From the NCBI RefSeq assembly GCF_030818255.1, contig NZ_JAUTAG010000001.1:1922001-1986000 (forward strand): 64,000 bases of DNA, read 5' to 3'. The notes below the pieces were generated by a model. That model had not been told where the DNA came from and ran no database searches. It saw only the letters and a program-made list of their open reading frames with translations. The stretch is from Microbacterium sp. SORGH_AS_0969. GTDB taxonomy: Bacteria; Actinomycetota; Actinomycetes; Actinomycetales; Microbacteriaceae. A program made the position numbers and the translations under genes. Of the stretch, positions 5,360 through 61,610 are shown piece by piece. The first letter of the stretch is position 1, and each line of letters opens with the position of its first letter.

Positions 5360-5427
5360 GCATAAACGCGATCCACTCGCATAAACGCGGTGTGCACGTG
5401 TTTCTGTGCGCGAATAGCGTTTATGCG
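5360..5427. repeat. Dispersed palindromic repeat, family 1, copy A
   Basis: A roughly 68-bp imperfect palindrome whose outer arms are CATAAACGCGAT on the left and GCGTTTATGCG on the right, with inner arms related to AGAAACACGTG. Copies B (42090-42157) and C (61542-61610) share the same outer and inner arms. This copy lies between the convergent ends of the LacI gene and the citrate transporter gene. It is not coding on either strand. Confidence 0.85.
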
Positions 5428-5487
5428 TCCACCCGACGGCGCCAGCGACGCGGTCCCGGCCCGCCCCTCGCCCCGCCCGACACAGAA

Positions 5488-5517
5488 GGGCCGCGGATGC
5501 CGTGGCATCCAGGGCCC
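5488..5517. terminator. Hairpin between convergent genes
   Basis: GGGCC, then GGATGCC-GT-GGCATCC, then GGGCCC form a strong GC-rich hairpin just after the stop of the citrate transporter gene (minus strand) and downstream of the LacI gene. It is probably a bidirectional terminator. There is no clear U-tract, as is usual in this group. Confidence 0.6.
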
Positions 5518-5532
5518 TCCCGAGCGAAACGT

Positions 5533-7059
5533 TCAGCCCAACAGCGGCACCGCGCCCACCAGCACGCCGACGGCGAGCATCACGAGCGACACGATCGTCG
5601 CGCGCCACAGCACCTTCTTGTGGTGGTCGCCGAGGTTGACGCCCGCGAGCGAGACGAGCAGCAGGATCGCGGGGACCAGCGGGCTCTGCAGGTGCACGGG
5701 CTGGCCCGTGATGGACGCGCGGGCCATCTCGACCGGCGCGATCCCGTAGTTGGCGGCGCTCTCGGCGAGCACGGGCAGGATGCCGAAGTAGAACGCGTCG
5801 TTCGACATGAAGAACGTGAACGGGATCGACAGGACGCCGGTGATGACCGCGAGGAAGGGTCCCATCGACGACGGGATCACCTCGGTGATCCACGAAGCCA
5901 TCGCCGTCACCATGCCGGTGCCGTTCAGCACGCCCACGAGGACACCGGCGGCGAGCACCATCGACACGACCCCGACGATGCTGGGCGCGTGGGCGACGAT
6001 CTCGTCGGCCTGGCCGCGCAGCTTCGGGAAGTTCACGATGAGGGCGAGCGCCGCGCCGACCATGAACACGAACGCGAGCGGGAAGATGTCCATCACCAGA
6101 AGCACCATCACCGCGACAGTCAGCGCGAGGTTGAACCAGATGAGCTTCGGGCGGAGGGTGGCGCGGTGCGGGTCGAGCATCGTGTCGGCCATCGCGGTGT
6201 CGGCGGTGTCGACCAGCTGGGTCGCGGCGACGGCGTCGCGGCCCCCGCGGACGGTGACGATGTTGCCGGTGCGCAGCGACGCGACGGCGCCGGGCTTGGG
6301 CTCCGCTCCGCGGAACAGCTTCGGGGCGCCGAGACGACCGAAGACCCCGGGGGTGTCGAGCTTCGAGGTGTCGACGACGCCCGCGAGGCGCTTGCGCTCG
6401 GCGAGGCCCAAGAACCAGGCGAACGTGAGCGAGACGACCAGGCCCGCGAGCAGCGACGGGATCATCGGCACGAAGACGTCGGTCGGCTGGAGGCCCAGTG
6501 CGGTCGCCGCGCGGACGGTCGGACCGCCCCACGGGACGATGTTCATCGTGCCGTTCATCAGGCCCGCGACACAGGTGAGCACGACGGGGCTCATCCCCAG
6601 GCGCAGGTAGAGCGGCAGCATCGCCGAGGTCGTGATGATGAAGGTGGTCGAGCCGTCGCCGTCGAGCGAGACGGCGCCGGCGAGGATCGCCGTGCCGAGC
6701 ACGATCTTGGCCGGGTCGTCGCCCAGCACGCGCGTGATCACGCGGATCAGCGGGTCGAACAGGCCGACATCGATCATGATGCCGAAGTACATGATCGCGA
6801 ACATCAGCAGGGCCGCCGTGGGCGCCATCTTGCTGATCGCGTCGATCACCATGTCGCCGAGTCCGAGGCCGGCCCCCGCGATCAGGCCGAAGATCGTGGG
6901 CACCACGATGAGGGCGACCATGGGGGTCAGGCGCCGCGTCATGATCAGCGCCATGAACGACAGGACCATGAGGAAGCCGAGGGCGACGAGCACGCCGTCG
7001 GCGGGCGTGTAGGCCACCGCGTACTCTTCGGCTTCGGCCGCAAGGATCAGGGGGGTCAT
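5533..7059 (-). CDS. CitMHS-type citrate/metal transporter
   Basis: A 508-aa polytopic membrane protein with about 12 hydrophobic segments split by a long cytoplasmic loop (about residues 225-310). The conserved segments LDGDGSTTFIITTSAMLPLY near residue 135 and NIVPWGGPT near residue 175 are those of the CitMHS family, which imports citrate complexed with Mg or Ca in symport with protons. The ATG at 7059 was chosen because GAAGGAG lies about 7 nt upstream; longer readings run into the divergent promoter region. The divergent neighbours are a CitA/CitB-type sensor and regulator, which supports control by external citrate. Confidence 0.9.
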   Translation of the reverse strand: MTPLILAAEAEEYAVAYTPADGVLVALGFLMVLSFMALIMTRRLTPMVALIVVPTIFGLIAGAGLGLGDMVIDAISKMAPTAALLMFAIMYFGIMIDVGLFDPLIRVITRVLGDDPAKIVLGTAILAGAVSLDGDGSTTFIITTSAMLPLYLRLGMSPVVLTCVAGLMNGTMNIVPWGGPTVRAATALGLQPTDVFVPMIPSLLAGLVVSLTFAWFLGLAERKRLAGVVDTSKLDTPGVFGRLGAPKLFRGAEPKPGAVASLRTGNIVTVRGGRDAVAATQLVDTADTAMADTMLDPHRATLRPKLIWFNLALTVAVMVLLVMDIFPLAFVFMVGAALALIVNFPKLRGQADEIVAHAPSIVGVVSMVLAAGVLVGVLNGTGMVTAMASWITEVIPSSMGPFLAVITGVLSIPFTFFMSNDAFYFGILPVLAESAANYGIAPVEMARASITGQPVHLQSPLVPAILLLVSLAGVNLGDHHKKVLWRATIVSLVMLAVGVLVGAVPLLG

Positions 7060-7246
7060 CGCGACTCCTTCGTCGGGACGGGCGCGTCTCTCGCGCTCTC
7101 GATGCGGCGACCCTACGGATGCCGAGACCTCGACCGCGCGCTTGCTCGCATTGCGCGGGGTTATGCGCGTACCGTGTGTTCTGCGCATTTCGCGCACGCC
7201 GTCGCGGTCACCGCCGCGCGCGACGACGCCGAACCCGGAGGTCCCC

Positions 7247-8860
7247 ATGCGGTTCGCCACCCGGATGCTCGTCGTGCAGATCGCGACCCAGATCGCCGTC
7301 GTCGCGGTGTGCACCGCGGTGTTCGCCTGGCTCGGCGTGCAACAGCTCAAGGCCGAGGCCGACTCGTCGGCGCTCAACATCGCCCGCGCGGTCGCCGAGG
7401 CCCCCGAGGTACGTGACCTCGTCGCCCGGTACTCCGCCGACCCGGGGACTCCGGATGCCGCCTCCCTCCGCGACGGCACGCTCCAGCACTACGCCGCCGA
7501 CGTCACCCAGCGCACGCGCGGCCTGTTCGTCGTGATCACCGACGACCACGGCATCCGTCTGGCCCATCCCGATCCGGACCGCCTCGGACAGGTCGTCAGC
7601 ACGAGCTTCGCCGATGCCCTCGCCGGGCGCGAGGTCGTGACGTGGGAGACCGGCACGCTCGGGGAGTCCGCGCGGGCGAAGGTGCCCGTGTACGCGCCCG
7701 ACGGGGGCCCGCCGGTCGGTGAGGTGAGCGTCGGCTTCGAACGCGCGAGCGTCTTCGACGATCTGCCCGCGCTCGTCGGCGGGATCGCCGTGGCCGTGGC
7801 GCTCGCCGTCGCGATCGGGGCGCTCGTCGCGCTGCTCATGCGCCGCCGACTCGAGCGCCTCACCCTCGGCGTCCAGCCCGAGGAGCTCGTCGCCCTCGTG
7901 CAGACCCAGACCGCCGTTCTCGAGGGAGCCGACGAGGGCGTCCTCGCGATCGACGAGACGGGGGTCGTGCGGGTGTGCACCCTCACCGCCGAGCGCCTTC
8001 TCGGGATCACGGATGCCGTCGGCCGCCCCCTCTCCGACCTCGATCTCGCCCCGGCCGTCGCCGCGGCCCTGGCCGGTGACGGTGCGAGCACGGGGCTGCC
8101 GGTCGCAGGGCGGGTGGTGTTCATCGACGTACGCCCGGTGCGCCGCGGCGCTCGCGCGCTCGGCCGGGTCGCGGTGTTGCGCGACCGCACCGACGTGGCC
8201 GCGCTGTCGGGGAGGCTCGACAGCGTCCGCGCGATGGGAGACGCCCTGCGTGTGCAGCGGCACGAGAACGCCAACCGCCTGCACGCGGCGGTGGGCTTGC
8301 TCGACGCCGGCCGCGCCGACGAGGCTCGCGCGTTCCTCGCCGACCTCGTCGACCGCGGCTCGGTGGACTGGGCCGTCCCGGGGATCGACCTCGTCGGCGA
8401 CGCGATGCTCCAATCGTTCCTCGGCGCGAAAGCGCTCGCCGCGCGCGAACGGGGAGTGGTTCTGCGCGTCTCCGACGACACCTACCTCCGCGGCACCGTC
8501 GACGACGTGGAAGACGTCGTGGCCGTGCTGGGAAACCTCGTCGACAACGCCGTGACCGCCACGGCATCCGGCCCCGAACCTCGAGAGGTCGAGGTCGCCG
8601 TGCTCGGCGACGGTGACGCGATCGTGCTCACGGTGACCGACACCGGGGGCGGGATCGCCGACGTCGACGCCGCCTTCGCCCCGCGCGAGCGCGACGACGA
8701 CCCCTCGGCTGTCCACGGCCTCGGTATCGGTCTGCCGCTCTCGCGCGAGTTCGCGCGACGCCGGGGCGGCGACGTGTGGGTCGTCGATCCCGGTGGCGAC
8801 GGTCACGGCGCCGTCGTGGCAGCCCGTCTGCCCGGAGTCCTTCGAGGAGAGAACGAATGA
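7247..8860 (+). CDS. CitA/DcuS-type sensor histidine kinase
   Basis: A 537-aa membrane sensor kinase. A first transmembrane helix lies near residues 5-25, followed by an extracytoplasmic PAS-like ligand domain to about residue 165, a second helix near 170-195, a cytoplasmic PAS domain and a kinase domain. The phospho-acceptor histidine is in QRHENANRLH, near residue 339, as in the CitA/DcuS class. The ATPase part shows NLVDNAVTAT, DTGGGI and GLGIGLPLS. The start at 7247 follows CGGAGGT. It overlaps the response regulator by ATGA and is divergent from the citrate transporter gene. Confidence 0.93.
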   Translation: MRFATRMLVVQIATQIAVVAVCTAVFAWLGVQQLKAEADSSALNIARAVAEAPEVRDLVARYSADPGTPDAASLRDGTLQHYAADVTQRTRGLFVVITDDHGIRLAHPDPDRLGQVVSTSFADALAGREVVTWETGTLGESARAKVPVYAPDGGPPVGEVSVGFERASVFDDLPALVGGIAVAVALAVAIGALVALLMRRRLERLTLGVQPEELVALVQTQTAVLEGADEGVLAIDETGVVRVCTLTAERLLGITDAVGRPLSDLDLAPAVAAALAGDGASTGLPVAGRVVFIDVRPVRRGARALGRVAVLRDRTDVAALSGRLDSVRAMGDALRVQRHENANRLHAAVGLLDAGRADEARAFLADLVDRGSVDWAVPGIDLVGDAMLQSFLGAKALAARERGVVLRVSDDTYLRGTVDDVEDVVAVLGNLVDNAVTATASGPEPREVEVAVLGDGDAIVLTVTDTGGGIADVDAAFAPRERDDDPSAVHGLGIGLPLSREFARRRGGDVWVVDPGGDGHGAVVAARLPGVLRGENE

Positions 8861-9507
8861 CCGGTATCCGTGTCCTCGTCGTCGACGACGACTTCCGCGT
8901 CGCGGGACTGCACCGTGACGCGGTCGCCGCGCGCCCCGGCTTCGTCGCGCTCGAGCCCGCGCGCACGGTCGGCGAGGCCCGAGCCGCCCTCGCCGCGCAC
9001 CGCCCCGATCTGCTGGTCGCCGACGTGTACCTGCCCGATGGTGACGGCGTGGAGCTCGTCCGCTCGGCCGGGATCGACGCGTTCGTCCTCTCCGCGGCGA
9101 CGGATGCCGAGACCGTCCGGCGTGCTTTCACCGCCGGGGCGCTCGCTTACCTCGTGAAGCCCTTCGACACGCGCGTGCTCGCGGAGCGGCTCGACCGTTA
9201 CGCGCGATACCGCAACCTGCTGACCAGCTCGCGGCCCCTGTCGCAGGACGACATCGACCGCGCGGCATCCGTGATGCGCGGGGAGCGCGAGGGGCCGTCG
9301 CTCGCGCGCTCGGCCACCGAGCAGACGGTGCTCGCCGCTCTCGGCGCGGACGAGGCCTCGGCGACCGAGGTGGCCGAGCGCATCGGCGTCTCGCGCGCGA
9401 CCGCGCAACGCCACCTGACCGCTCTCGCCGAGCGGGGTCTCGTGCAGGTGAGTCTGCGCTACGGCTCGACGGGTCGCCCCGAGCACCGGTTCCGCGTCGG
9501 CGCCTGA
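8857..9507 (+). CDS. CitB/DpiA-type response regulator
   Basis: A 216-aa response regulator. The receiver domain has the acidic pair in VVDDDF near residue 10, the phosphorylated Asp in VADVYLPDGDG near residue 55 and the conserved Lys in YLVKPFD near residue 103. The C-terminal domain has a winged helix-turn-helix ATEVAERIGVSRATAQRHL near residue 170, as in CitB/DctR regulators of di- and tricarboxylate uptake. It overlaps the kinase stop by 4 nt. It probably activates the divergent citrate transporter gene. Confidence 0.93.
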   Translation: MTGIRVLVVDDDFRVAGLHRDAVAARPGFVALEPARTVGEARAALAAHRPDLLVADVYLPDGDGVELVRSAGIDAFVLSAATDAETVRRAFTAGALAYLVKPFDTRVLAERLDRYARYRNLLTSSRPLSQDDIDRAASVMRGEREGPSLARSATEQTVLAALGADEASATEVAERIGVSRATAQRHLTALAERGLVQVSLRYGSTGRPEHRFRVGA

Positions 9508-9593
9508 CCCGCGGAGCGAGGACGGTCACGGGTCGCGGTAGGCGGTGGCAGGGCTCGTCAAAGCCGCCTCCGGCAGGGGTGGCGTGAGGTGAC

Positions 9594-9699
9594 TGAGCTT
9601 GTCGAAGCCACCGGGGTGCGACGGCCCCGGTCCCTTCGACAGGCTCAGGGACCTGCCTTCGACATGCTCAGGGACCTGCCTTCGACATGCTCAGGGACC
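9594..9699. repeat. Palindromic/tandem repeat, family 3
   Basis: Three tandem copies, period 23 bp, of CCTTCGACA(G/T)GCTCAGGGACC begin at 9633, 9656 and 9679. An inverted relative, TGAGCTTGTCGAAG, lies at 9594-9607, so the stretch can fold back on itself. The first copy is itself palindromic (GGTCCCT at 9629 with AGGGACC ending at 9653). Relatives occur at 40295-40319 and 40347-40375. The array fills the gap between the response regulator stop and the convergent GH13 gene stop. Confidence 0.85.
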
Positions 9700-9708
9700 C
9701 CGAGGGGG

Positions 9709-10992
9709 TCACGCTTCCAGGACGACCCACCCGCGCGACGCGAGCTCGACGCGCCCGTCCATCGGCCACCCCTCGCCGGCCACGGGGGTCAGCCCGTCCG
9801 CGACCGGCAGCGACACCGGCTCGTCGCCGACGTTCAGCGCGACGACGACCGCGTCATCGCCGACCGCCGTCCGCAGGGCGAGAGCGGTATTGGCGACCTC
9901 GATCACGTCGGTATGCGCCCGCCACAGCCACGGCTTCCGGCGGCGCAGCGCGATGAGCGCGCGGTGGGCCTGCAGAATGCGCTCGTCGCCCTGCGCTTCC
10001 CCGGGGGTCGAGGGGAACGCGGGTCGCACCGCGTCGTCGCCCCCGACGCGTTCCTCTTTCACTCCCGTCCACCCGAACTCGTCGCCCGCGTACACCGACG
10101 GCGTCCCGGCGACCGTGAAGAGCACCGCGAGGGCATGCGGCACGAGGTCGCGACCCACGGCCGAGGCGATCCGCGTGACGTCGTGGTTCCCGACGAACGT
10201 CTGCGGCACGAAGGTCCGCAGCATCTCGTCGTGGCGCTCGATGGCGTGCCGCAGCTCGAAGAGGTTGCGGTCGGCGATGCCGTGCCAGATCCCCTGCCAC
10301 AGCTCGTACTGCGTGAGCGAGTCCATCGTCGACTCCCGCACGATCGCCGGAGCGTCGCCGTGGATCACCTCGCCCAGGAACCACCCTTCCGGGAAGCGCT
10401 CCCGCACGCGGGGGAGCACCTCGGCCCAGAACGACGACGGCACCGCGTACGCGGCATCCAATCTCCAGCCGTCGATGCCCCGCTCGAGCCAGTGGCACAT
10501 GACGTCGGCGACGAGGTCGACCACGGCGGGGGAGGAGTGATCCAGCGCGACGAGCGCGTCATGCCCCTCGAACACGTCGGCCTCGAACCGTCCGTCGATC
10601 CAACGCCCGCGGAACAGGCCCGGCCCGTTCTCGGTCAGGTCCCGGAAAGCCGCGTGACCGCGCCCCACATGGTTGAACACGCCGTCGAGCAGGATCCGGA
10701 TGCCACGCTCCCGAGCCGCCGCGACGAGTCGGTCGAAGTCCCGGTCATCGCCCAGTCGCGGGTCGATGCGGAAGTGGTCGACCGTGTCGTAGCCGTGCGT
10801 CTCGGAGGCGAACACCGGTCCCAGCAACAGGCCGTTCAGCCCCAGCTCGATGACGTGGTCGAGCCACGGCTCGAGGCGGTCGAGGCGGTGCACCGGCGCG
10901 GCATCCGGACCCTCGTTCTCGCGGATCGGGGCGTCGACGAAGCCCAGCGGATAGACGTGCCACCAGATCACGTGTTCGGGCCACGAGGGCAT
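9709..10992 (-). CDS. GH13 alpha-amylase-family glycosidase
   Basis: A 427-aa GH13 enzyme acting on alpha-glucosidic linkages. The (beta/alpha)8 barrel motifs are region I LDGVFNHVG near residue 100, the nucleophile Asp in WRLDAAY near 178, the acid/base Glu in LGEVIHG near 207 and the transition-state Asp in VGNHDVTR near 270. At 427 aa it is short for the family and appears to lack a large domain B. No signal peptide is visible, so it is probably cytoplasmic. The ATG at 10992 follows GAGAGGAG. It lies downstream of the ROK gene on the same strand and belongs to the alpha-glucoside module. Confidence 0.9.
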   Translation of the reverse strand: MPSWPEHVIWWHVYPLGFVDAPIRENEGPDAAPVHRLDRLEPWLDHVIELGLNGLLLGPVFASETHGYDTVDHFRIDPRLGDDRDFDRLVAAARERGIRILLDGVFNHVGRGHAAFRDLTENGPGLFRGRWIDGRFEADVFEGHDALVALDHSSPAVVDLVADVMCHWLERGIDGWRLDAAYAVPSSFWAEVLPRVRERFPEGWFLGEVIHGDAPAIVRESTMDSLTQYELWQGIWHGIADRNLFELRHAIERHDEMLRTFVPQTFVGNHDVTRIASAVGRDLVPHALAVLFTVAGTPSVYAGDEFGWTGVKEERVGGDDAVRPAFPSTPGEAQGDERILQAHRALIALRRRKPWLWRAHTDVIEVANTALALRTAVGDDAVVVALNVGDEPVSLPVADGLTPVAGEGWPMDGRVELASRGWVVLEA

Positions 10993-11067
10993 CCGGTCTC
11001 CTCTCGATCGGGGTCGAGGTTCTCGACGCTATCCGGGGGGTCCGACACGGCGAGGGGGGCTTGCCCC

Positions 11068-12294
11068 TCACGCCCGCGCCCGGTCCTCGGGCAGGGCGAA
11101 CGCCTCGAGATCGAGCGCGCGAGCGCGCGCCGACTCGACGGCGGCGGAGACGGCCCCGATCGACACGATGTCGGCCCCGAGCGTCGAGGCCACGATCCGC
11201 GGCGCCGGAAGGTGCAGCGAATCGGGGATCGCCTCGATCGCCGCGGCGATGATCGGTCCCGCACCGGCAGCGATCGCTCCGGACACCACCACGCGTTCCA
11301 CGTCGAAGAGGCTGCCGAAGATCGCCGCCACTCCGGCGAGCGCCGGGCCGACCGCGCGTGCCGCGGCGAGGGCTCCGATATCGCCCGCGGCGGCGAGGTC
11401 GAGCACGGTCTTGGCATCGAGGCGCTCGGGATCGATCCCACGTAGCGCGCTGTCGACCGGAAGGGTTCCGGATGCCAGAGCCGCCCGCGCCGCATCCACG
11501 CACCGCGGTGCGAGGCCCCACGCGCTGCCGACGCCCTCGACCTGATCGAAGGCGACGGTCTCGCCCGCCCCTCCGTGCGCGCCGCGGAGCAGATGACCGT
11601 CGACGCTGATCCCCGCGCCGAACCGCTCGCCGGCGAGCAGCGCGACGAAGTCGTCGCAGCCCACCGCCGCGCCGTGCGTCCCTTCAGCCACCGCGGCGAG
11701 GGTGGCGTCGTTCTCGACGCGTACGACGGGCGCCCACGCCGCGAAGGTGTCGACGAAGTCGGGGTTCATGCGCGCCCAGAAGCCGTCGTGGTGGACGGGG
11801 GACCGCCCCGCCCGGTCGACCGGCGCGGGCACGCCGACACACAGCGCGACGAGGTCGTCGCGCGAGCGCCGCGCGCGCGTGAGGGCCGCGTCGACCGTCG
11901 CCTCGGCGGCGCGGCGGCGTCGCTCGGGCGAATCGAGTTCGGGGTCGACGGTGAGCCGCGAGGTCGCGAGGGTCGTGCCGCGGAGGTCGGCGACGGTCGC
12001 GGTGAGGTGACCGCGTCCCGCGTCGACCCCGACCACGAGCCCTGCGCCGGGTTGGAAGGCGAAGCGGCGCGCGGGGCGCCCCTTCGAGTACTCGCCGACC
12101 GCGCGGGCGTTGGGCATCTCCGCGAGGAGCCCGCGTGCGGTCAATTCATCGAGCACGTCGATGGCCGTCGAGCGGGTCAGCCCGACCGCGGCGATCACGT
12201 CACTGGCGGTGAAGGCGTCCTCGTCCCAGACGCGGGTCAGCACCGCGTCGAGGTTGTGGCGGCGCAGCGACGGCGTCGTCGTCATGGCATCCAT
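11068..12294 (-). CDS. ROK-family transcriptional repressor
   Basis: A 408-aa ROK regulator. An N-terminal winged helix (ASDVIAAVGLTRSTAIDVLDEL, near residues 30-52) is followed by a sugar-kinase-like domain with VVGVDAGRGHLTATVADL and GAGISVDGHLLRGAHGGAGE. The Cys-rich zinc motif CxCGxxGC of Mlc/NagC is not present. Start is ATG 12294, with ATG 12285 as an alternative. It is divergent from the importer operon, and a palindromic candidate operator lies between them, so it most likely represses the alpha-glucoside genes. Confidence 0.9.
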   Translation of the reverse strand: MDAMTTTPSLRRHNLDAVLTRVWDEDAFTASDVIAAVGLTRSTAIDVLDELTARGLLAEMPNARAVGEYSKGRPARRFAFQPGAGLVVGVDAGRGHLTATVADLRGTTLATSRLTVDPELDSPERRRRAAEATVDAALTRARRSRDDLVALCVGVPAPVDRAGRSPVHHDGFWARMNPDFVDTFAAWAPVVRVENDATLAAVAEGTHGAAVGCDDFVALLAGERFGAGISVDGHLLRGAHGGAGETVAFDQVEGVGSAWGLAPRCVDAARAALASGTLPVDSALRGIDPERLDAKTVLDLAAAGDIGALAAARAVGPALAGVAAIFGSLFDVERVVVSGAIAAGAGPIIAAAIEAIPDSLHLPAPRIVASTLGADIVSIGAVSAAVESARARALDLEAFALPEDRARA

Positions 12295-12350
12295 CGGCTC
12301 TCTTGACCCCCCTGAGTTCTCCTGCAATACTGCCTGCACGACATTGATTT

Positions 12351-12370
12351 GGCGAGTAGATTTACTCACC
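12351..12370. promoter_or_regulatory. Candidate ROK operator
   Basis: GGCGAGTAGATTTACTCACC is a near-perfect 20-bp palindrome: 8-nt half sites matching at 7 of 8 positions around an AT-rich GATT centre. It lies midway in the 114-nt region between the ROK gene and the divergent binding-protein gene, where an operator for both would be expected. Confidence 0.55.
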
Positions 12371-12408
12371 GACACAACATATTCGCAGTGCAGCGGAGGA
12401 GGCAGCTG

Positions 12409-17307: not shown

Positions 17308-17328
17308 TCTCGCGCGCCACTCTCGTCG

Positions 17329-17383
17329 ACTGTCCAAGACACGCCGTAACTCCCCGCGCGGTTACGGCGTTTCTCGGACACTC
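17329..17383. repeat. Dispersed palindromic repeat, family 2, copy A
   Basis: A roughly 55-bp palindrome: left arm TGTCCAAGACACGCCGTAAC and right arm GTTACGGCG followed by TTTCTCGGACACTC. A second copy is at 42551-42606. It lies between convergent genes, and in the restored frame the stop codon of the glycosyltransferase gene falls inside its right end. Confidence 0.85.
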
Positions 17384-21531: not shown

Positions 21532-21537
21532 CACAGC

Positions 21538-42089: not shown

Positions 42090-42157
42090 ACATAAACGCG
42101 ATCCGCTCGCAGAAACACGTGCAGAACGCGTTTATGTGCGCGAATCGCGTTTATGCG
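42090..42157. repeat. Dispersed palindromic repeat, family 1, copy B
   Basis: Outer arms CATAAACGCGATCC and GAATCGCGTTTATG, inner AGAAACACGTG; same length and layout as copy A (5360-5427) and copy C (61542-61610). It lies between the convergent ends of the ABC-F gene and the LysR-HTH gene. Confidence 0.87.
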
Positions 42158-42524: not shown

Positions 42525-42550
42525 TCTCCCGTGTCACGCGACGAGACGTT

Positions 42551-42606
42551 GAGTGTCCAGGACACGCCGCTTCGCGCGGCGCGGATGCGGCGTTTCTTGG
42601 ACACTC
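42551..42606. repeat. Dispersed palindromic repeat, family 2, copy B
   Basis: GAGTGTCCAGGACACGCCGC on the left and GCGGCGTTTCTTGGACACTC on the right, around a GC-rich centre. It matches copy A at 17329-17383 in both arms. It lies between the start of the LysR-HTH gene and the end of the GMC oxidoreductase gene. Confidence 0.87.
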
Positions 42607-42643
42607 GATAGGGAGAGGCGGCGGGGAGAGACGACGGTCGGGA

Positions 42644-51325: not shown

Positions 51326-51427
51326 TCGACCGTTGTAGAGCGCGCGGGTCGCGATCATCTCGCCGTGTCGATCGCGGGACAATGACCGTCTCGTCCCTGA
51401 CAGGCCGGACGGGGCGGCTGACGCCCC

Positions 51428-51452: not shown

Positions 51453-51574
51453 CTTCACCTCACCCGCCGGTGTTCCACAGTCCGCCCCATCGGACGGCGG
51501 CGCTCTCGGTCGCCGCGAGGGCGGGGACCTCGCGAGGATCGGCCGGTGAAATCCCATCGCCTGAGGTCGACGGC

Positions 51575-54063: not shown

Positions 54064-55244
54064 ATCGGGGGCTCCGTTCTGCGGTTGCGGCGGCGTGTGC
54101 CGTTCCACCACTGCCGGAGGCCGCGCACGAGGCGGCGTCTGCGGGCACGGGCGGGATCATCCAGGGGTTCGCCGGCCGCGCGGGCGGACGCGAGGGCCAC
54201 GTCATCCGGGGGCCACAGGACGCGCAGCGCGGTGCGCAGGCGCGCGGCGCGCGGGATCATGCGAAGGGCGGTGAGGTAGGCCCGAGCGCGATCGGGGCGT
54301 GACCTCCAGGTCCAGTCGCGGGGAAGGGATGTCCCCTCTTCGTCGCGGAGCGCGGCTGGCTCGATGCGCACGATCTCATCGCGGAGCACGGGCACGGCGC
54401 CGAGGGCGTGCGCGCGCCTGGTGGACCCCGGGGCCGCTCGCAGCAGCGCCCGGGCGACCGCGGCGGCCTCGTCGGAACGTCCGGAGTCTCCGATGCCCGG
54501 GCGCACGGCGTTCACCGCGGCGAGCACCGCGTGATCGTCGATCGCGGGCACGAGAACATCGACGCCCGCCAGACGCAGCGTCGTCGCGCGCTCGGAGACA
54601 AGGGCGAACGCGGCCGCATCGTCGAGGGCGAGGCCCGGGAGACGGCGGTGGACGTCGATCTCGCAGCCCCAGACTCGGGGGCTCATCGTCATGCTGTGCG
54701 GCACCGCGCTGCCATGCCACGGATCGGGAAGGCGTTCCCAGCCCCAGCTCTCAAGCGCCGTCGCCAGTGCGGTCCAGCGCGACGGCTCGCACCAGACGTC
54801 GACGTCGCCCGAGTGCTCACGTTCCCGCAGGCCCTGCAGGTGGAGCGGGGGCCCTTTCACGAACACGCACGGGACGGCGATGTCGGCCGCCACGCGCGCG
54901 GTCAGCGCGTAGACCAACTCGTGGAGGGGTGAAGACAGCACCGGTTCCGACAGGAACGTCACCCGGGCGGGATGAGTCTCCGCGAATGCGGCGAGACCAT
55001 GCTCGGCGAGGGCCTCGACGATGGCCAGTTCGTCGGCGCCCATCGAGGTGGGGGAGAGGGGGGATTCGTCGATGAGCCGCCGCCACAGGGCAGCTCCGGC
55101 CCCGACGAGGCACATCGCCTCACCGGGAACAGTCGGGGCGACGAGGATCCCGGCGGTATCACCGAAATCGGTGAGTCCCCGGACGTCGAGGGCGCCGTAG
55201 GCGATCGGCATCCATCCCTCGACGGGTGAACGGTCAGAGGGCAT
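54060..55244 (-). CDS. PqqD-like domain fused to a nucleotidyltransferase-fold protein
   Basis: A 394-aa protein with two parts. Residues about 25-90 look like a PqqD-type winged helix, the RiPP leader-binding fold (VPGEAMCLVGAGAALWRRLID). Residues about 115-330 match the uncharacterised nucleotidyltransferase family often annotated NTP_transf_5, with VFVKGPPLHLQ near 145, the metal motif SGDVDVW near 160 and EIDVHRRLPG near 207. ATG 55244 was chosen over longer readings. It is coupled to the Wzy-like gene and follows a small ORF at 55357-55593. Proteins of this type occur in RiPP and exopolysaccharide loci. Confidence 0.72.
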   Translation of the reverse strand: MPSDRSPVEGWMPIAYGALDVRGLTDFGDTAGILVAPTVPGEAMCLVGAGAALWRRLIDESPLSPTSMGADELAIVEALAEHGLAAFAETHPARVTFLSEPVLSSPLHELVYALTARVAADIAVPCVFVKGPPLHLQGLREREHSGDVDVWCEPSRWTALATALESWGWERLPDPWHGSAVPHSMTMSPRVWGCEIDVHRRLPGLALDDAAAFALVSERATTLRLAGVDVLVPAIDDHAVLAAVNAVRPGIGDSGRSDEAAAVARALLRAAPGSTRRAHALGAVPVLRDEIVRIEPAALRDEEGTSLPRDWTWRSRPDRARAYLTALRMIPRAARLRTALRVLWPPDDVALASARAAGEPLDDPARARRRRLVRGLRQWWNGTRRRNRRTEPPI

Positions 55245-55356
55245 GCGAGGCTCCCGGGACGTGGCAGGCGACCTCACAGTGTGGCCCGGACCGCTCGCAC
55301 CCGATCTCGGGTTCGCGACAGTCAGCGTCTGAGGGAAGCCCTCTTCGCGCGCCGCA

Positions 55357-55593
55357 TCATCTGGTGGTGCCGCGCTTCTCACCTGCGAAGTGATCGGGAC
55401 CGCGGCAGTTGTGGGGCCAGTCGAAGCCCGGCAGGCCCGAGAGGTCGGGCACAGGCGGTGTGCGAACGGGAGCGGGCGCGGCGTCCCCCAATGCCGCCGC
55501 GCCCGCCGACGAGAACAGGGGCGGCCCGGCGTCGATCCGACGCGCACGAGCGACGGAGGAGTCGGGGGCCTCACACCATGTCTCTCGCTTCAT
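55357..55593 (-). CDS. Small ORF upstream of the PqqD-nucleotidyltransferase gene, possible RiPP precursor
   Basis: A 78-aa ORF (MKRETWCEAPDSS start) on the same strand as the PqqD-containing gene, 112 nt before it. Codon third positions are strongly G or C along the frame, supporting real coding. The C-terminal part LSGLPGFDWPHNC then RGPDHFAGEKRGTTR is rich in Gly, Pro, Trp, His and Cys. A GTG at 55632 would add 13 residues. No known precursor family is recognised, and no ribosome-binding site is obvious, so this stays tentative. Confidence 0.5.
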   Translation of the reverse strand: MKRETWCEAPDSSVARARRIDAGPPLFSSAGAAALGDAAPAPVRTPPVPDLSGLPGFDWPHNCRGPDHFAGEKRGTTR

Positions 55594-55608
55594 CCAAGCA
55601 CAGCGGTT

Positions 55609-55639
55609 CGTAAATAGCACTGTTTGATTCACGTAAATA
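55609..55639. promoter_or_regulatory. Two direct repeats CGTAAATA, candidate operator
   Basis: CGTAAATA occurs at 55609-55616 and 55632-55639, about two helical turns apart (23 nt), in an unusually AT-rich stretch just before the XRE regulator gene. On the minus strand the same sites read TATTTACG and could be -10-like elements for the small ORF. Confidence 0.45.
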
Positions 55640-55659
55640 CGATCAGGGGGGCGGTCGTC

Positions 55660-55665
55660 TACGAT
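55660..55665 (+). promoter_or_regulatory. Candidate -10 element, leaderless XRE gene
   Basis: TACGAT lies 6 nt before GTG 55672, the inferred start of the regulator gene, without a ribosome-binding site. Confidence 0.5.
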
Positions 55666-55671
55666 CGAAGG

Positions 55672-56316
55672 GTGGGTCGGGGTGCTGTCGGACCACCTTC
55701 TCGGTACTCCCGGCGAGTGGTGGCGAATGTGGATCGCCTGCGGAGGGCGAAAGGGCTCACCGTCGGTGAGCTCATCAGCCGCGCCGGGATGACGAAGAGC
55801 TACTACCAGTCACGTGCGGGTTTCTCGCTGCCGTACAACACCAACGACATCGAAGCGCTCGCCGCCGTGCTCGAGGTGACGCCCGAACAGCTCGCGAGCC
55901 CCGACTCGGCCCCTCGCATCGAGATGCGCGTACCCGCCGCTCCCGTCGCCCAGCGTGTGCGTCGCCTGGTCGCCGGTCACGCCGCATCGGAGTCGGATCT
56001 GCTCGATCATCTCGAAGCCGTCGATCCCCGTGCCGCCGACGGCGCGCGGACCCTGCTCACCGCCACGACGAACACGGTGGTCCTCGACGAAGAGGTGCTT
56101 CGACTCATCACACAGTGGGCCGACGTCCCCGTGGAATACCTCACCGATCACACCGACGAAGCCTTGACCGATCGGACCGAGGCCGAACTCGAACTGCGCG
56201 ACGCGATGCGGGAGGCGGGCGCAGAGAGGATCCAGTTCCGCGCGCTCGGACAGATGTCTCCCGACGCGCTCCGCGCGATCGCACGATCTCTCCGGGGCAG
56301 GCCGCCGGCGTCATGA
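55672..56316 (+). CDS. XRE-family helix-turn-helix regulator
   Basis: A 214-aa protein. Residues about 18-75 are an XRE-type helix-turn-helix (VDRLRRAKGLTVGELISRAG, then MTKSYYQSRAG, then LAAVLEVTPEQLASPD). The C-terminal 130 residues are acidic and helical with no recognised domain and may be a sensing or oligomerisation part. GTG 55672 is preferred because TACGAT lies 6 nt upstream. It is followed after 22 nt by the ImmA/IrrE-type peptidase gene, the classic repressor-peptidase pair. Confidence 0.85.
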   Translation: MGRGAVGPPSRYSRRVVANVDRLRRAKGLTVGELISRAGMTKSYYQSRAGFSLPYNTNDIEALAAVLEVTPEQLASPDSAPRIEMRVPAAPVAQRVRRLVAGHAASESDLLDHLEAVDPRAADGARTLLTATTNTVVLDEEVLRLITQWADVPVEYLTDHTDEALTDRTEAELELRDAMREAGAERIQFRALGQMSPDALRAIARSLRGRPPAS

Positions 56317-56338
56317 TCCACCGGACGGGGAGGCGGCG

Positions 56339-56800
56339 GTGACGGCGACCGACGACATGCTCGCGCGGGTGCGGACGCGTGGCGATCGCGCGCTCGCCCG
56401 CACGACGCTGGCTCCGGGGGCGACCTTCGACGAGGTCGTCCGCGCGGTCGAGCAGGCGGTCGGCATCCGGCTCCGGGTCATCGCCGAGACCGACACCGCA
56501 TCGTGGGGCACGCTGACCGGCTACCTCGTCTCGTTCCCCGATCGTCGCGAGGGGACCATCCACGTCCGGGCGGCCGACGCGCCCGTCTATCGCGAGTTCG
56601 CGGCCTCGCACGAGTTGGGCCACCTTCTCGACGACGCGCACTGCTGCGGCGCGGTGCACGAACGCTCGTCTGTCGCCCCGCACGCCAATCCCGATCTCGA
56701 CACGGTGCAGGTCGAGGCCGAGCTCGTGGCCGAACACGTCGCCCACGCCATCGCGCGTCTCATATACGCCAGCCCGAGGGTGGCGGAGCTCGCATGGTGA
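56339..56800 (+). CDS. ImmA/IrrE-type metallopeptidase
   Basis: A 153-aa protein with the zinc motif HELGH in FAASHELGHLLDDAHC near residue 85 and a downstream acidic helix VEAELVAEHVAHAIARL that can supply the third ligand. ImmA/IrrE peptidases cleave a partner XRE repressor upon a signal, as in ImmR/ImmA and DdrO/IrrE. The GTG at 56339 follows GGGGAGG. It overlaps the membrane protein gene by 7 nt. Cleavage of the upstream regulator is inferred from context. Confidence 0.85.
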   Translation: MTATDDMLARVRTRGDRALARTTLAPGATFDEVVRAVEQAVGIRLRVIAETDTASWGTLTGYLVSFPDRREGTIHVRAADAPVYREFAASHELGHLLDDAHCCGAVHERSSVAPHANPDLDTVQVEAELVAEHVAHAIARLIYASPRVAELAW

Positions 56801-57720
56801 CCATGCTCCTCATCGACGCGGCGCTCGTCGGACTCGCGCTCGTCGTGATTCTGCGGGCGCGCGTCGCATGGCGGCAACCGCGCGCGCGGATCGCCTGGCT
56901 CGCGGCCCTCCTGGGCGTCATCGCTCTCCTCACCCAGGGCACCGTCATCCCTCTCGCGACGCTGGACAGTCCGCTCGGCGGAACCAACGTGCTCAAGCTC
57001 GTGCAGAACGTCCTGACGATGGTCGCGCTGTGGCTCGGCATCCAGGCCGGCACGGCTCCTGCGAGCGCGCGGATCAGGACCCTCCGGTGGGGCTTCCCGC
57101 TGACCCTGGCAGCGCTGTTCGCCGTGGTCTTCTTCGTGGCGATGCCGGAGCGTGGTCCCTCATCGTTCCTGTTCCTCGAGACGGCGGCGCACACGTCGAC
57201 CGGTGCGTGGGCCTACGGCATCCTGCACATGTCGGGAATCGCCCTGGTCGGGGTCCTGCTCTACCGATCGGCGCGCACTTCGCTCCCCGTCGCGCGCCGG
57301 CTGTTCCGCGTGGGCGCCGCGGGCATCGTGCTCGGCTGTCTCAGCGAGGTCGTCGACATCACCCTCACGCGGTTCTTCGTCCCGAACGCCGTCGTCAGCG
57401 CCCTCTTCGACCCGCTGTTCTATCTCGGCGTGGTGTCGTTCGTGATCGGGATCTTCATGGCATCCCGGACCGTCGCAGAGATCCGTCGTCGGGGGCAGAG
57501 CCTGCTCGCACGCGCCGAGCGGCTCGCTCGGGATCGTGCGGCGAGCGTGCCGGTCGGACCCGCGGCGTTCGGGGAACTCGACACCCGACTCCACGCCCTG
57601 CGCGTCGCCATTGAAGACGACGCGATCGCCACCTCGACCCCTCTGCGGGACGAGGAGCGCGCTCTGCTGGACGCCATCGACACCCACCTCACCCGCCCCA
57701 CCTCAGGAGACCGCGCATGA
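56794..57720 (+). CDS. Seven-helix membrane protein (MAB_1171c/DUF6545-like)
   Basis: A 308-aa protein with about seven hydrophobic helices in residues 1-225 and a charged cytoplasmic tail of about 80 aa ending in an acidic, helical segment. The pattern resembles the MAB_1171c-type putative transporters that accompany XRE and ImmA-like genes in actinobacteria; the match is by architecture and gene order only. It overlaps both neighbours (7 nt and ATGA), so all are translated together. It could be the sensor that controls the peptidase. Confidence 0.7.
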   Translation: MVTMLLIDAALVGLALVVILRARVAWRQPRARIAWLAALLGVIALLTQGTVIPLATLDSPLGGTNVLKLVQNVLTMVALWLGIQAGTAPASARIRTLRWGFPLTLAALFAVVFFVAMPERGPSSFLFLETAAHTSTGAWAYGILHMSGIALVGVLLYRSARTSLPVARRLFRVGAAGIVLGCLSEVVDITLTRFFVPNAVVSALFDPLFYLGVVSFVIGIFMASRTVAEIRRRGQSLLARAERLARDRAASVPVGPAAFGELDTRLHALRVAIEDDAIATSTPLRDEERALLDAIDTHLTRPTSGDRA

Positions 57721-58850
57721 CTCGCCGCCTCATCGTCGGAACCGGCATCGCCGCGGCGGCCGTCGGCGCTGTGCATCTCGCGCTCGGCGGTTACGTCGCC
57801 CGGCGCCTGATCGCACCGCGCGCAGCCAAGCCCTTCGTCCCCGTCGAGATCGACGGCGACACGGTCTCGGTGCCCGCGACCGCCGAGAGTCGGCAACCGG
57901 GCACGTACGGCGTCTGGCTCGACGACGGCGCGCACCTCACGGTCGGCGAGATCGTGCGGGACGACGGAGCGCGCATCGTCCGATCCCTCGTCGCGCGTCC
58001 GGACGGCCTGGCCGACGGCCCCGCGCGAGGGGCGTGGACGTCGCAGAGCATCGGGGCCCCCGAGGAGGTGGGCCCGACGCAGCACGTCGCGATCCCCCTC
58101 CGGCGCGGCGGGGATGCCCGAGCGTGGGTCATCGGGGATCCGGATGCCGCGCGCTGGACCATCCACGTGCACGGCCTGCGGTCGAGCCGGTCCGGCGCGC
58201 TGCGCTCGGCCCCCGCCGCTCACGACGCCGGGTGGACCTCGCTCGTCGTGTCGTACGCGGGTGACGAGGAAGCGGCTCCCGCCGAGGCGCTGCCCTCGTC
58301 GCTCGGGATGCGGGAATGGCGCGACGTCGACGACGCGATCAGCTACGCCGTCGAGCACGGCGCGCGCGAGATCGTGCTCGTGGCGTGGTCGATGGGGGCG
58401 ACGATCGCGATGCTCGCGCTCGAGGAGTCGCGTCATCGCGCGGCGATCACCGGTCTCGTGCTCGTCGCCCCTGCCCTGGATTGGAACCGGATCGTTGCCC
58501 GCGCGGTGCGGGGCGTGCACCTCCCCGGTTCCGTCGGCGCCACCGCCCTGCGGGTGCTCGAAAGCCGGCTCGGATCGCGGGTACTCGGACTCATCGAGGC
58601 GGTCGACGCCCGCGCGCTGAACTGGGTCGACGGCCCGCGTCCCGCGCCGGCTCTGCCGACCCTCATCGTGCACAGTCTGCGTGACCCGGTGGTGCCGGTG
58701 ACCGGTTCGACGGCTTACACGGCGCGGCATCCCGAGGCCTCGCTCGTGGCGTTCGACGCGACGGGGCACTGCAACGAGGCGAACCAGGATCCCGAGCGGT
58801 TCCGCGGGGCGATCACCGGGTTCTTGCGCGGGCTCCCGCGCGCCGATTAG
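57717..58850 (+). CDS. Membrane-anchored alpha/beta hydrolase
   Basis: A 377-aa protein with an N-terminal hydrophobic anchor (residues about 5-28) and an alpha/beta hydrolase domain. The nucleophile Ser is in VLVAWSMGATIAM near residue 225, the Asp in VHSLRDPVVPV near 323 and the His in ATGHCNEAN near 350. The first 120 residues of the mature protein form an unrecognised domain. It overlaps the membrane protein gene by ATGA, ending a four-gene operon. Its stop overlaps that of the convergent alditol oxidase gene. The substrate is unknown; a lipid or peptide is possible. Confidence 0.85.
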   Translation: MTRRLIVGTGIAAAAVGAVHLALGGYVARRLIAPRAAKPFVPVEIDGDTVSVPATAESRQPGTYGVWLDDGAHLTVGEIVRDDGARIVRSLVARPDGLADGPARGAWTSQSIGAPEEVGPTQHVAIPLRRGGDARAWVIGDPDAARWTIHVHGLRSSRSGALRSAPAAHDAGWTSLVVSYAGDEEAAPAEALPSSLGMREWRDVDDAISYAVEHGAREIVLVAWSMGATIAMLALEESRHRAAITGLVLVAPALDWNRIVARAVRGVHLPGSVGATALRVLESRLGSRVLGLIEAVDARALNWVDGPRPAPALPTLIVHSLRDPVVPVTGSTAYTARHPEASLVAFDATGHCNEANQDPERFRGAITGFLRGLPRAD

Positions 58851-60094
58851 AGCCCCAGCGTCCGCCGCAGGAAGTCGTTGCGGAAGACGCCGCGCGGGTC
58901 CGCCTCCCTCGCCGTCGCGAGGAAGTCGTCAGCGCGGGGGAGCGTGGCGCGGACGGCGTCTCCGGGCATGGTGAAGGCTTTGCCCCAGTGCGGCCGGACG
59001 TCGAACGGCGCGAGCGCCGCCTCGATGCGGGGCAGCACGCCGAGGACGCCTTCGGTGTCGTTGCGCCAGGTGAAGTGGATTGCGAGCACGTCGCGCTGAT
59101 ACGCGGGGCTCAGCCACAGTTCGTCGGCGGCGACGGTGCGCAGCTCGGTGACGAGGAGGTGCGCGTCGAATGCGGGCGCGATCGCCCGCACGGCGGCAAG
59201 GGCTTCGCGCGCGGACGAGAACGGGACGAAGTACTCGGACTGGATCTCGTCGCCGTCGCTGGGGAGGGCGTCGGCGCGGAAGTGCGGGAGCCGCGTGTGC
59301 CACGGGCCGGCGGTCCCGCGCGGGGTGGTGTTGTCGACGGTGCGGATCCGTCCGAGCTGGATGTCGTCTCCGACGGGTCGACCGCCCAGCTCTTCGACCC
59401 GGTCGGGTGCGCCGTCGTCGCTCTTCGCCCAGACGAGATCGTGGGCGGGGTCTCCCCACGTCGTGAAGACGCTGACGCTGCGCGAGCCGCCGAACACGCG
59501 CTCGGGGTCTGCCACGATGTCGTCCCACGCCACGCCGGTGTACGCCTGCTGCGTCACCCGGTAGGTCGGCTCGGTCTGCAGTTCGACCGCGGTGACGACA
59601 CCGAGGGCGCCGATGCTGAGGGCGGCCGTGGGGAACCACGCATGCGTCTGGTCGATCCGGTGCGTTCGGCCCTCGGCATCCATGATCTCGACCGCCCGCA
59701 CGGCGCTCGACAGGTTGCCGTTGTGGGTACCGGAACCGTGCGTTCCCGTGGCGGTGGCGCCGGCGACGGAGATGTGGGGGAGCGAACCGAGGTTGTGCAG
59801 GGCGCGGCCCTCGGCCTCGATCACGGGCGCGAGCTGCGCGAACGTCACGAGACCCTCGACGCGCACGCGGTCGCCGGTCACCTGGACGCGGGTGGGCATG
59901 CGCTCGAGCGACACCAGCGCCGCGTCGGAGTCGGCCACGTCGTTGAACGTGTGCCGCGTCGCCTGGACGCGGAGGGTGCGGGCGGATGCCACGACCTCGG
60001 CGAGCTCGTCGAGGTCGGCGGGCAGCAGCACTTCGGTGGCGCGGTAGCGGTGGTTTCCCGACCACGTGGCTCCGGCGGGGCGTGTCTCGGTCAT
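58847..60094 (-). CDS. Alditol (xylitol) oxidase, FAD-dependent
   Basis: A 415-aa VAO-type flavoprotein that oxidises sugar alcohols with oxygen, forming hydrogen peroxide. The FAD-binding part has VQATRHTFNDVAD near residue 44, with His48 at the position that carries covalently bound FAD in AldO, and VAGATATGTHGSGTHNG near 105. The C-terminal ALO-like domain has HFTWRNDTEGVLGV near 330. ATG 60094 follows GAGGAGAA. It lies downstream of the ROK gene, 232 nt away on the same strand. Similar in length to Streptomyces AldO. Confidence 0.87.
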   Translation of the reverse strand: MTETRPAGATWSGNHRYRATEVLLPADLDELAEVVASARTLRVQATRHTFNDVADSDAALVSLERMPTRVQVTGDRVRVEGLVTFAQLAPVIEAEGRALHNLGSLPHISVAGATATGTHGSGTHNGNLSSAVRAVEIMDAEGRTHRIDQTHAWFPTAALSIGALGVVTAVELQTEPTYRVTQQAYTGVAWDDIVADPERVFGGSRSVSVFTTWGDPAHDLVWAKSDDGAPDRVEELGGRPVGDDIQLGRIRTVDNTTPRGTAGPWHTRLPHFRADALPSDGDEIQSEYFVPFSSAREALAAVRAIAPAFDAHLLVTELRTVAADELWLSPAYQRDVLAIHFTWRNDTEGVLGVLPRIEAALAPFDVRPHWGKAFTMPGDAVRATLPRADDFLATAREADPRGVFRNDFLRRTLGL

Positions 60095-60190
60095 GGTTCT
60101 CCTCGCGTCGACGTGTCCATCCTGCCCTGGGTCGCCGACGTCGGGGCCGGCGCGGCGCGCGCGGGGCGGAAAGGAGGGGCGGGGACGAGC

Positions 60191-60219
60191 GGAGGACGTG
60201 TCGGCCGGGGGCGTCCTCC
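60191..60219 (-). terminator. Weak hairpin downstream of the ROK gene
   Basis: GGAGGACG (60191-60198) and CGTCCTCC (60212-60219) form an 8-bp stem with a 13-nt loop in the gap after the ROK gene stop. Probably a terminator, but without a U-tract. Confidence 0.35.
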
Positions 60220-60326
60220 CTTCGTCCCTGGTCCTCCCCGCGTCACGTGGTTGCGGCCCGAACGGGAGGAGATGCGCGGGGGTCGGTACGCCCTCCCGAC
60301 CCGGGATGTCCTCCCGGTGGGAGCGC

Positions 60327-61484
60327 TCAGCGCCCCGGGAAGAGCTCGGCCTCGAAGACCGCCTCAGCCGCGCCTACGAGCAACCGGTCCTCGCCCAGCT
60401 CTGCGACCGCGAGACGCAGGCCCTCGGCGCACGCGGGCACCGTCTGCGCGCGCACCGCTGCGTCGAGCCCGTCGAGATCGCGCGCCGCGAGCACGGCCAG
60501 GAAGCCGCCGAGCACGATCACCGCCGGGTTCAGCACGTTCGCGGCGTTGGCGAGAGCTGTCGCGAGGATCCGCCGCTGCCGATCGACTTCGGCGGCCGAA
60601 ACGGGGTCGGATGCGGATTCCAGGGCGTCGGACAGGGCCGCGTCGTCACCGCCTTCGAGCCCCACGGCGGCGAGCAGCCGCGAGCGGCTCACCTCGTCTT
60701 CGAGCACCCCGTCGGCGGCCCGACGGTCGGCGGCATCCACGATCCCGGGGCGGTTCTGCCCGAACTCGCCCGCGTATCCGCCCGCGCCGCCGAGCGAGGT
60801 GCCGTCGACGATCACGGCACCGCCGATGCCGCTCGCGCCGCCGTTGAGGTACACGACGTCGTGGGCGCCGCGCGCGGCGCCGAAGAGGTGCTCGGCGACA
60901 GCGCCGAGCGCGGCGTCGTTGCCCACCCGGGCCGGCAATCCCGTCGCTTGTTCGATGAGCGTGCCGATCGCGGCATCCGTCCACTCCAGGTGCGGGGCCG
61001 TGCGCACGAGGCCGTCCGAGGCACGCACGGGACCGGGGACCGCGACTCCGACACCGACCGTGCGGCGATCGCGGAGCGGTCCGTCGGCCCAGGCGGCGAG
61101 GCGCTCGCCGACGATCTCGGCGGTGCGCTCGGGGGTCAGCAGCCGCCTCTGTGGGAGGCGTTCGCGGGCGATCAGCGTGCCATCGAGCGCGATGGCGCCG
61201 ATGTCGAGCGCGTCGACCTCGGGGTTCACCGCCACCGCGACGACACGCGGATCGGGGGCCACCGTGGGCGACGGGCGGCCGACCCGGCCGATCGGATCGG
61301 GGGCGCGCTCGACGACGAGGCCATCGCTCACGAGCTCGCCGACGAGATCGGCGATCGTCGAGCGGTTCAGGCCCGTTGCCTCGGTCAGGGCCGCGCGGGA
61401 GCGGGGGCCCTCGCGGTGCACGGTGCGCAGCACCAGCGCGAGATTGGCGCGGCGCATGCCGTCGCCTCTGCTCGCGGTGACCAT
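60327..61484 (-). CDS. ROK-family transcriptional regulator
   Basis: A 385-aa ROK regulator. The N-terminal winged helix is GPRSRAALTEATGLNRSTIADLVGEL near residues 25-50, followed by the sugar-kinase-like domain with VPGPVRASDG, VGNDAALGAVAEH and GIGGAVIVDGTSLGGAGGYAGE. As in the first ROK protein of this window, the zinc-binding Cys motif is missing. Start is ATG 61484. It probably controls a sugar or polyol operon, perhaps with the downstream alditol oxidase gene. Confidence 0.9.
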   Translation of the reverse strand: MVTASRGDGMRRANLALVLRTVHREGPRSRAALTEATGLNRSTIADLVGELVSDGLVVERAPDPIGRVGRPSPTVAPDPRVVAVAVNPEVDALDIGAIALDGTLIARERLPQRRLLTPERTAEIVGERLAAWADGPLRDRRTVGVGVAVPGPVRASDGLVRTAPHLEWTDAAIGTLIEQATGLPARVGNDAALGAVAEHLFGAARGAHDVVYLNGGASGIGGAVIVDGTSLGGAGGYAGEFGQNRPGIVDAADRRAADGVLEDEVSRSRLLAAVGLEGGDDAALSDALESASDPVSAAEVDRQRRILATALANAANVLNPAVIVLGGFLAVLAARDLDGLDAAVRAQTVPACAEGLRLAVAELGEDRLLVGAAEAVFEAELFPGR

Positions 61485-61541
61485 TCGTCCACTGTGCCAT
61501 GAGGCGCGTCGACGCGTCGGCATCCGGGACCTCCGTTCGTG

Positions 61542-61610
61542 GCCATAAACGCCATCCGCGCACAGAAACGCGAGTACAGCGTGTTTCTGTGCCCGGATCG
61601 CGTTTATGCC
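61542..61610. repeat. Dispersed palindromic repeat, family 1, copy C
   Basis: Outer arms GCCATAAACGCCATCC and GGATCGCGTTTATGCC, inner arms ACAGAAACGCG and GTGTTTCTGT. It matches copies A and B. It lies downstream of the LacI gene end and upstream of the ROK gene start, both on the minus strand. Confidence 0.87.

What the first reader, a model, noticed from the sequence alone, without database searches (positions are those of the whole stretch)
5360..61610. Family 1: a 68-bp dispersed palindrome in three copies, always after a gene's 3' end
Copies at 5360-5427, 42090-42157 and 61542-61610 share outer arms CATAAACGC...GCGTTTATG and inner arms related to AGAAACACG. Each folds as one long imperfect hairpin. 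All sit between genes: two between convergent genes, one after the LacI gene. Equal length and conserved arms with changed centres suggest a REP-like, mobilised or functional RNA/DNA element rather than chance. It could stop transcription from both sides, bind a nucleoid protein or be spread by a RAYT-type transposase. I do not know of a described family with this sequence.
Basis: seen in the sequence. Interest (0 to 1): 0.72.

Follow-up and report, generated by a model that had tools for sequence, protein, structure and literature searches.

The report
Dispersed palindromes with resident nuclease gene
Short mirror-image DNA sequences scattered after gene ends in a soil bacterium belong to a family that brackets one particular nuclease-like gene, and similar gene-and-palindrome pairings recur in related bacteria, which suggests an undescribed kind of self-spreading DNA repeat.

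Summary
The element is a rigid 65-bp near-palindrome of four 9-bp boxes (CATAAACGC-10-CAKAAACRC-9-GYGTTTMTG-10-GCGTTTATG). The window's own genome holds 74 copies at 49 sites; 0 of 74 lie in called genes and 45 of 49 sites adjoin a gene 3' end.

It is not a RAYT system: no Y1 transposase was found. Instead copies bracket one gene between nusG and rplK, whose protein models as an AbiEi-like part plus a Vsr-like/EDxHD nuclease domain. Orthologues occur in 32 of 39 element-bearing and 0 of 327 element-free Microbacterium genomes; 28 of 30 loci have elements on both sides. Homologues elsewhere have their own bracketing palindromes in 63 of 92 loci versus 10 of 736 controls, as far as another class (21 copies).

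Copies at one fixed site resemble the gene-flanking copies of their own genome more than their orthologues, and score worse where the gene is lost.

Best reading: a REPIN-RAYT-like partnership with an unrelated nuclease. The association is shown; binding, cutting and copying are inferred.

The parts
5361..5425 (.). Element copy 1, 65-bp near-palindrome between convergent genes
   Evidence: arms 5361-5389 and 5397-5425
42091..42155 (.). Element copy 2, 65-bp near-palindrome in a 108-bp convergent gap; an element with at most 5 of 26 mismatches sits in the same gap in 26 of 30 other element-bearing Microbacterium genomes examined
   Evidence: arms 42091-42119 and 42127-42155
61544..61608 (.). 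Element copy 3, 65-bp near-palindrome after the LacI-type gene
   Evidence: arms 61544-61572 and 61580-61608

Best explanation
The element is the DNA target of a resident protein with an AbiEi-like N-terminal half and a Vsr-like/EDxHD nuclease half. Its gene (own genome C1:2339087-2340034, minus strand, between nusG and rplK, outside the window) is bracketed by copies of the element. Most likely a protein dimer binds the 65-bp two-fold site, each subunit touching two boxes 19 bp apart. By nicking or cutting at such sites and triggering repair from another copy it keeps the scattered copies alike and, rarely, seeds new ones; copies survive where they do no harm, after gene ends. The gene itself seems to stay put and pass down vertically, as RAYT genes are said to do. 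Shown: architecture, dispersal, placement, bracketing, co-occurrence, concerted change, fewer and weaker copies where the gene is missing. Inferred: binding, cleavage, copying, vertical descent (from constant location; no tree was made).
Against: No binding, cleavage or movement was measured. No target-site duplication, so no insertion mechanism is shown. 7 element-bearing genomes lack the orthologue (two under 90% complete), and 13 of 20 genomes without a protein match at 1e-40 still have palindrome hits. 29 of 92 homologue loci show no qualifying shared palindrome. At the fixed site own-genome similarity ranks poorly in 5 of 24 genomes, and one genome with the gene (G016) has no element there. 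Self-complementarity at that site is not clearly lower in gene-lacking genomes (p 0.057). One site kept across many species suggests slow turnover rather than active movement. Kinship was not corrected for in any of these tests.
Confidence: 0.62

Rival explanations
1. The elements are working sites for the protein, not its cargo: the AbiEi-like part binds them for regulation, chromosome organisation or to hold a defence nuclease on the chromosome, and selection keeps each site matched to the protein.
For: The window's second site is kept in the same gap in 26 of 30 element-bearing relatives examined; boxes change in step with the gene-flanking copies; rigid geometry, and arms that do not covary as a hairpin inside the genome, fit double-stranded DNA recognition; that site scores worse where the gene is lost or disrupted.
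Against: Copy number runs from 1 to 73 among the 39 element-bearing genomes; local arrays with 147-251 bp steps look like spread; residues of the nuclease half are invariant over 76 proteins, as expected if catalysis matters.
Confidence: 0.25
2. They are long two-way transcription terminators or RNA hairpins spread by selection at convergent gene ends.
For: 45 of 49 sites adjoin a gene 3' end; strong predicted hairpins.
Against: Pairing not protected by compensatory change in the own genome; only one weak terminator-like match within copy 2 (copies 1 and 3 not scanned); does not explain bracketing of one gene or species-specific boxes.
Confidence: 0.06
3. REP/REPIN elements moved by a RAYT (Y1 transposase).
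For: Extragenic palindromes beside a single resident gene, the same logic as REPIN-RAYT (PMC3116915, passages).
Against: No Y1_Tnp match in the own genome; the bracketed gene has a different predicted fold.
Confidence: 0.02
4. MITEs of a DDE transposon, the 29-bp arms being its terminal inverted repeats.
For: Two inverted arms around a short centre, multiple copies.
Against: No excess of target-site duplication for 2-9 bp; listed hits are all 65 bp. A parent transposon was not searched for.
Confidence: 0.03

Closest known systems
REP/REPIN elements with RAYT (TnpA_REP, Y1 transposase)
   Same: Extragenic palindromes in many copies, local clusters, a resident gene flanked by the repeats, species-specific variants, repeats fewer where the gene is missing; RAYTs are described as single-copy and vertically inherited (PMC3116915 and PMC8049555, passages).
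   Different: Partner is an AbiEi/Vsr-like protein and no Y1 transposase was found; 65-bp four-box two-fold site; seen here in Microbacterium and relatives.
EDxHD homing endonuclease I-Bth0305I and Vsr-like nucleases
   Different: Gene sits between genes with target-like copies on both sides and scattered elsewhere, not inside an intron; N-terminal half is AbiEi-like; activity untested.
AbiEi antitoxin of the AbiE (type IV) toxin-antitoxin system
   Different: Extra nuclease half; neighbours in family 1 are nusG and rplK, not a toxin gene.

Membership tests
REP/REPIN-RAYT | Extragenic imperfect palindromes in many copies | tested here: met
   74 copies, 0 in called genes
REP/REPIN-RAYT | Y1 (HUH) transposase partner in the genome | tested here: not met
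   PF01797: 0 matches in own genome; 5 of 14 control genomes ring
REP/REPIN-RAYT | Repeats flank the partner gene | tested here: met
   met for the nuclease-like gene, 28 of 30 loci; not for a RAYT
REP/REPIN-RAYT | Hairpin pairing preserved by compensatory change | tested here: inconclusive
   35 copies of the own genome: 82.2% cells paired versus 83.2% shuffled, covariation 0.056 versus 0.068, so not seen; between 36 palindromes of other families arms do covary, 0.376 versus 0.180 shuffled
EDxHD/Vsr-like homing endonuclease | Catalytic-domain fold | tested here: met
EDxHD/Vsr-like homing endonuclease | Site-specific DNA cleavage | not testable with these tools
   only conservation: E193, E197, D228, E239, D241, K245 invariant in 76 proteins
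EDxHD/Vsr-like homing endonuclease | Gene within an intron or intein, or interrupting its own target | tested here: not met
   gene lies between nusG and rplK with whole elements beside it
AbiE toxin-antitoxin | Adjacent AbiEii toxin gene | tested here: not met
   in the own genome the gene lies alone between nusG and rplK; nusG and/or rplK flank it in 30 of 30 family-1 loci, both in 27; other families not checked
MITE | Target-site duplication | tested here: not met
   no excess of direct flanking repeats, 74 elements
Intrinsic terminator | Stem followed by T-run | tested here: inconclusive
   one weak 5-pair match inside copy 2 in a 4-kb scan; copies 1 and 3 not scanned

The most novel reading that the evidence does not exclude
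A phylum-wide class of selfish or domesticated repeats: each AbiEi/Vsr-like nuclease gene of Actinomycetota is a 'palindrome keeper' that cuts its own family of long palindromes and lets repair copy them, so that each gene runs its own population inside the genome. Many proteins now annotated as orphan AbiEi antitoxins would be the enzymes of this class.
Probability: 0.42. Interest if true: 0.93.

Novelty: categorically new. Interest (0 to 1): 0.86.

Why it matters
REPIN-RAYT is the best-known bacterial palindrome population tied to a resident enzyme (as far as I know), and what keeps it alive is an open question. An independent system with a different enzyme would give a second test case. It gives a testable role to a protein family now named as orphan antitoxins or left hypothetical, and a nuclease family whose long targets differ from species to species would be a natural experiment in protein-DNA coevolution.

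Tried and rejected
RAYT partner: rejected, no PF01797 match. RNA hairpin under selection: not seen within the genome, although arms covary between families, as would also be expected if both half-sites follow one protein. MITE with target-site duplication: not supported. Phage origin: the box pattern has 0 hits in the viral collection. Rfam: only rRNA in the window. A clean empty site: one genome (G016) has a 27-bp gap without element at the tested site, but deletion and never-inserted cannot be told apart. Literature: searches list no paper that I could see to link such palindromes to such a gene; only listings were seen except for passages of three papers, and the library lacks most subscription journals and preprints. 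My first gene caller was crude and put 25 of 244 elements (many genomes) 'inside' ORFs; it was replaced by a codon model for the own genome. One script ended in an error after printing part of its results and was redone. PDB by sequence: no useful match.

Rows dropped: L284 (wrong gene coordinates, contig end), L242 (short flank), L333 and L334 (duplicates of L290 and L295) and L260 (family 1). L299's match is a 304-bp duplication that is not a palindrome and may count falsely among the 63. From, G016 (no element in the gap, gene present). The 30 loci are the best-scoring of 44 genomes searched (loci capped at 30) and all come from element-bearing genomes.

Full report
THE OBSERVATION. The three copies are real. 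A pattern for one arm finds both arms of each copy and nothing else in the window, with a mean of 0.00 in shuffles. The conserved core is 65 bp. In the whole genome in which the window lies (one contig, 3,939,785 bp; window = 1922001-1986000) the arm pattern has 73 + 67 hits and none for the reversed control. A sequence model built from 35 copies gives 148 strand hits, that is 74 elements.

ANATOMY. The 35 copies align without gaps over 65 columns: box CATAAACGC, 10 bp, box CAKAAACRC, 9 bp, then the same two boxes reversed. A search that allowed 64-66 bp shows only 65-bp hits in its (capped) list. The arms are not kept complementary inside this genome: 82.2% of cells paired versus 83.2% when 3' letters are shuffled, covariation 0.056 versus 0.068. 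So the sequence of each half-site, rather than base pairing between the arms, seems to be what is kept. That points to double-stranded DNA bound by a two-fold symmetric protein (inference).

PLACEMENT. With a codon-model gene caller of my own (ORFs of 60 aa or more) the 74 elements fall in 49 sites: 24 convergent, 21 co-directional, 4 divergent, 0 elements in genes; in the window as a whole 7 of 46 neighbouring gene pairs are convergent. In co-directional sites 22 of 29 elements are nearer the upstream gene's 3' end. Thirty-three elements stand alone and 41 are in arrays of 2-4 with steps of 147-251 bp. There is no sign of target-site duplication.

DISTRIBUTION. A 26-position pattern (up to 3 mismatches) hits 39 of 366 Microbacterium genomes, with 0 hits for the reversed control in every one. 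An exact two-box pattern hit 7 of 35 genomes of the genus and 0 of 23 genomes of other genera in a sample of 58. Of 120 matching stretches in the named genome collection (scan stopped at its limit) 80 are listed; their titles are Microbacterium, a Microbacteriaceae MAG or an Actinomycetota MAG. The viral collection has none. The 10-bp linkers and box edges differ by species.

THE PARTNER GENE. An array of elements in one fetched contig (L119) surrounds an ORF, and related ORFs lie beside elements in four other contigs. A profile of these five proteins run over the same 366 genomes gives a group of 32 genomes at 444 bits or more, then a gap to 372. All 32 are among the 39 element-bearing genomes; none is among the 327 others. 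In 30 fetched loci of this group elements lie on both sides in 28; one locus begins near a contig end (L216) and one (L239, whose gene has an in-frame stop) has one side only; shuffled loci gave 0 hits. The gene lies by nusG and/or rplK in 30 of 30 loci (both seen in 27). In the own genome it is C1:2339087-2340034, with elements at 2338762, 2338954 and 2340112. The seven element-bearing genomes without it are G092, G128, G176, G271, G023, G374 and G376; G271 and G023 are under 90% complete.

GENERALITY. Twenty loci of more distant paralogues, from genomes without CATAAACGC elements, were fetched: in 16 of 20 the listing shows 65-bp palindromes of the same box plan but other words (GAGAAACCA, GAGACACCA and others) on both sides, in L240, L255 and L259 on one side. 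L250 has a 56-bp version in which the inner boxes abut, read by eye. A covariance model of 36 such palindromes finds hits in 27 of 27 chosen paralogue-bearing genomes (4-108 strand hits each; some, beside the genes, by construction), but also in 13 of 20 genomes without a protein match at 1e-40; 7 of 20 had none. Homologues occur in 126 of 248 genomes drawn from the order at 1e-20 and 26 of 246 from the phylum at 1e-15. Requiring a shared, self-complementary repeat in both 600-bp flanks, 63 of 92 homologue loci outside family 1 qualify (16 of 19 genus paralogues, 15 of 28 and 15 of 20 in the order, 17 of 25 in the phylum set), against 10 of 736 mismatched flank pairs (at least 7 of these between Microbacterium loci with similar palindromes) and 1 of 67 other own-genome genes near elements. 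In a genome of another class (G656) the palindrome beside the gene has 42 strand hits, 21 places. The own genome's second homologue (C1:2946831-2947775) has its own palindrome, 6 places.

CONCERTED CHANGE AND DECAY. The gap holding window copy 2 was examined in 30 other element-bearing genomes. Elements with up to 5 mismatches are there in 26; three (G092, G128, G294) score 6, 11 and 6 and G016 has a 27-bp gap with no room. In 24 genomes (own included) with both this site and gene-flanking copies, the variable half-site letters at the site agree with the gene-flanking copies of the same genome at 0.616, with those of other genomes at 0.438, and with the orthologous site copies at 0.452; no permutation of 10000 reaches the observed sum. 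The own genome ranks first in 9 and in the top five in 19 of 24; in 5 it ranks poorly. Mismatches at this site are higher in the 5 genomes where the gene is absent or disrupted than in 25 with it (p 0.0005), but loss of self-complementarity is not significant (p 0.057). Copy numbers are lower in the 7 genomes lacking the gene (median 5 versus 23.5 in 32, p 0.0009; 8 versus 24 in genomes at least 90% complete, p 0.005). None of these tests corrects for kinship, and the mismatch score is measured against a consensus drawn mainly from gene-bearing genomes.

INTERPRETATION. What is shown is a tight, recurring partnership between families of long palindromes and AbiEi/Vsr-like genes, with matched change. 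What is inferred is that the protein binds the palindrome as a dimer, cuts or nicks it, and so drives its copying or conversion. A site-function reading, with selection keeping sites matched, is the main rival. The logic is that of REPIN-RAYT (resident single-copy gene described as vertically inherited, repeats fewer where the gene is missing: PMC3116915 and PMC8049555, passages), but the defining Y1 transposase was sought and not found, so it works like that system and is not a member of it. I rate it categorically new because the enzyme and the target plan differ from it; a stricter reader could call it a new variant of the REP-like kind.

Noticed in passing
window 42541-42607 and 17324-17383: A second dispersed palindrome family (GAGTGTCC...GGACACTC type), with another copy in the own genome (L357:3219-3279) and copies in relatives' loci (L378, L400, L405, L124, L093, L150, L162, L168). 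Its partner gene was not sought.
   Followed up: partly
own genome C1:2352444-2353328 (L291): A third homologue of the nuclease-like gene with an in-frame TGA, apparently decayed.
   Followed up: no
own genome, 74 elements: Uneven spread along the chromosome: 250-kb bins hold 8-12 copies at 0-0.5, 1.5-2.0 and 2.25-2.5 Mb, but 0-1 at 0.5-0.75, 1.0-1.5 and 2.5-2.75 Mb. Unexplained; the origin was not located.
   Followed up: no
L250: about 2393-2448 and 3597-3652: A 56-bp version in which the two inner boxes abut, about one helical turn shorter than the 65-bp form (read by eye).
   Followed up: no
elements in the own genome (alignment A1): The two arms often differ in the 10-bp linker (one arm ATCC-type, the other GTTT/ATTC-type), which gives many copies a polarity; in the arrays printed, copies share it (by eye).
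   Followed up: no
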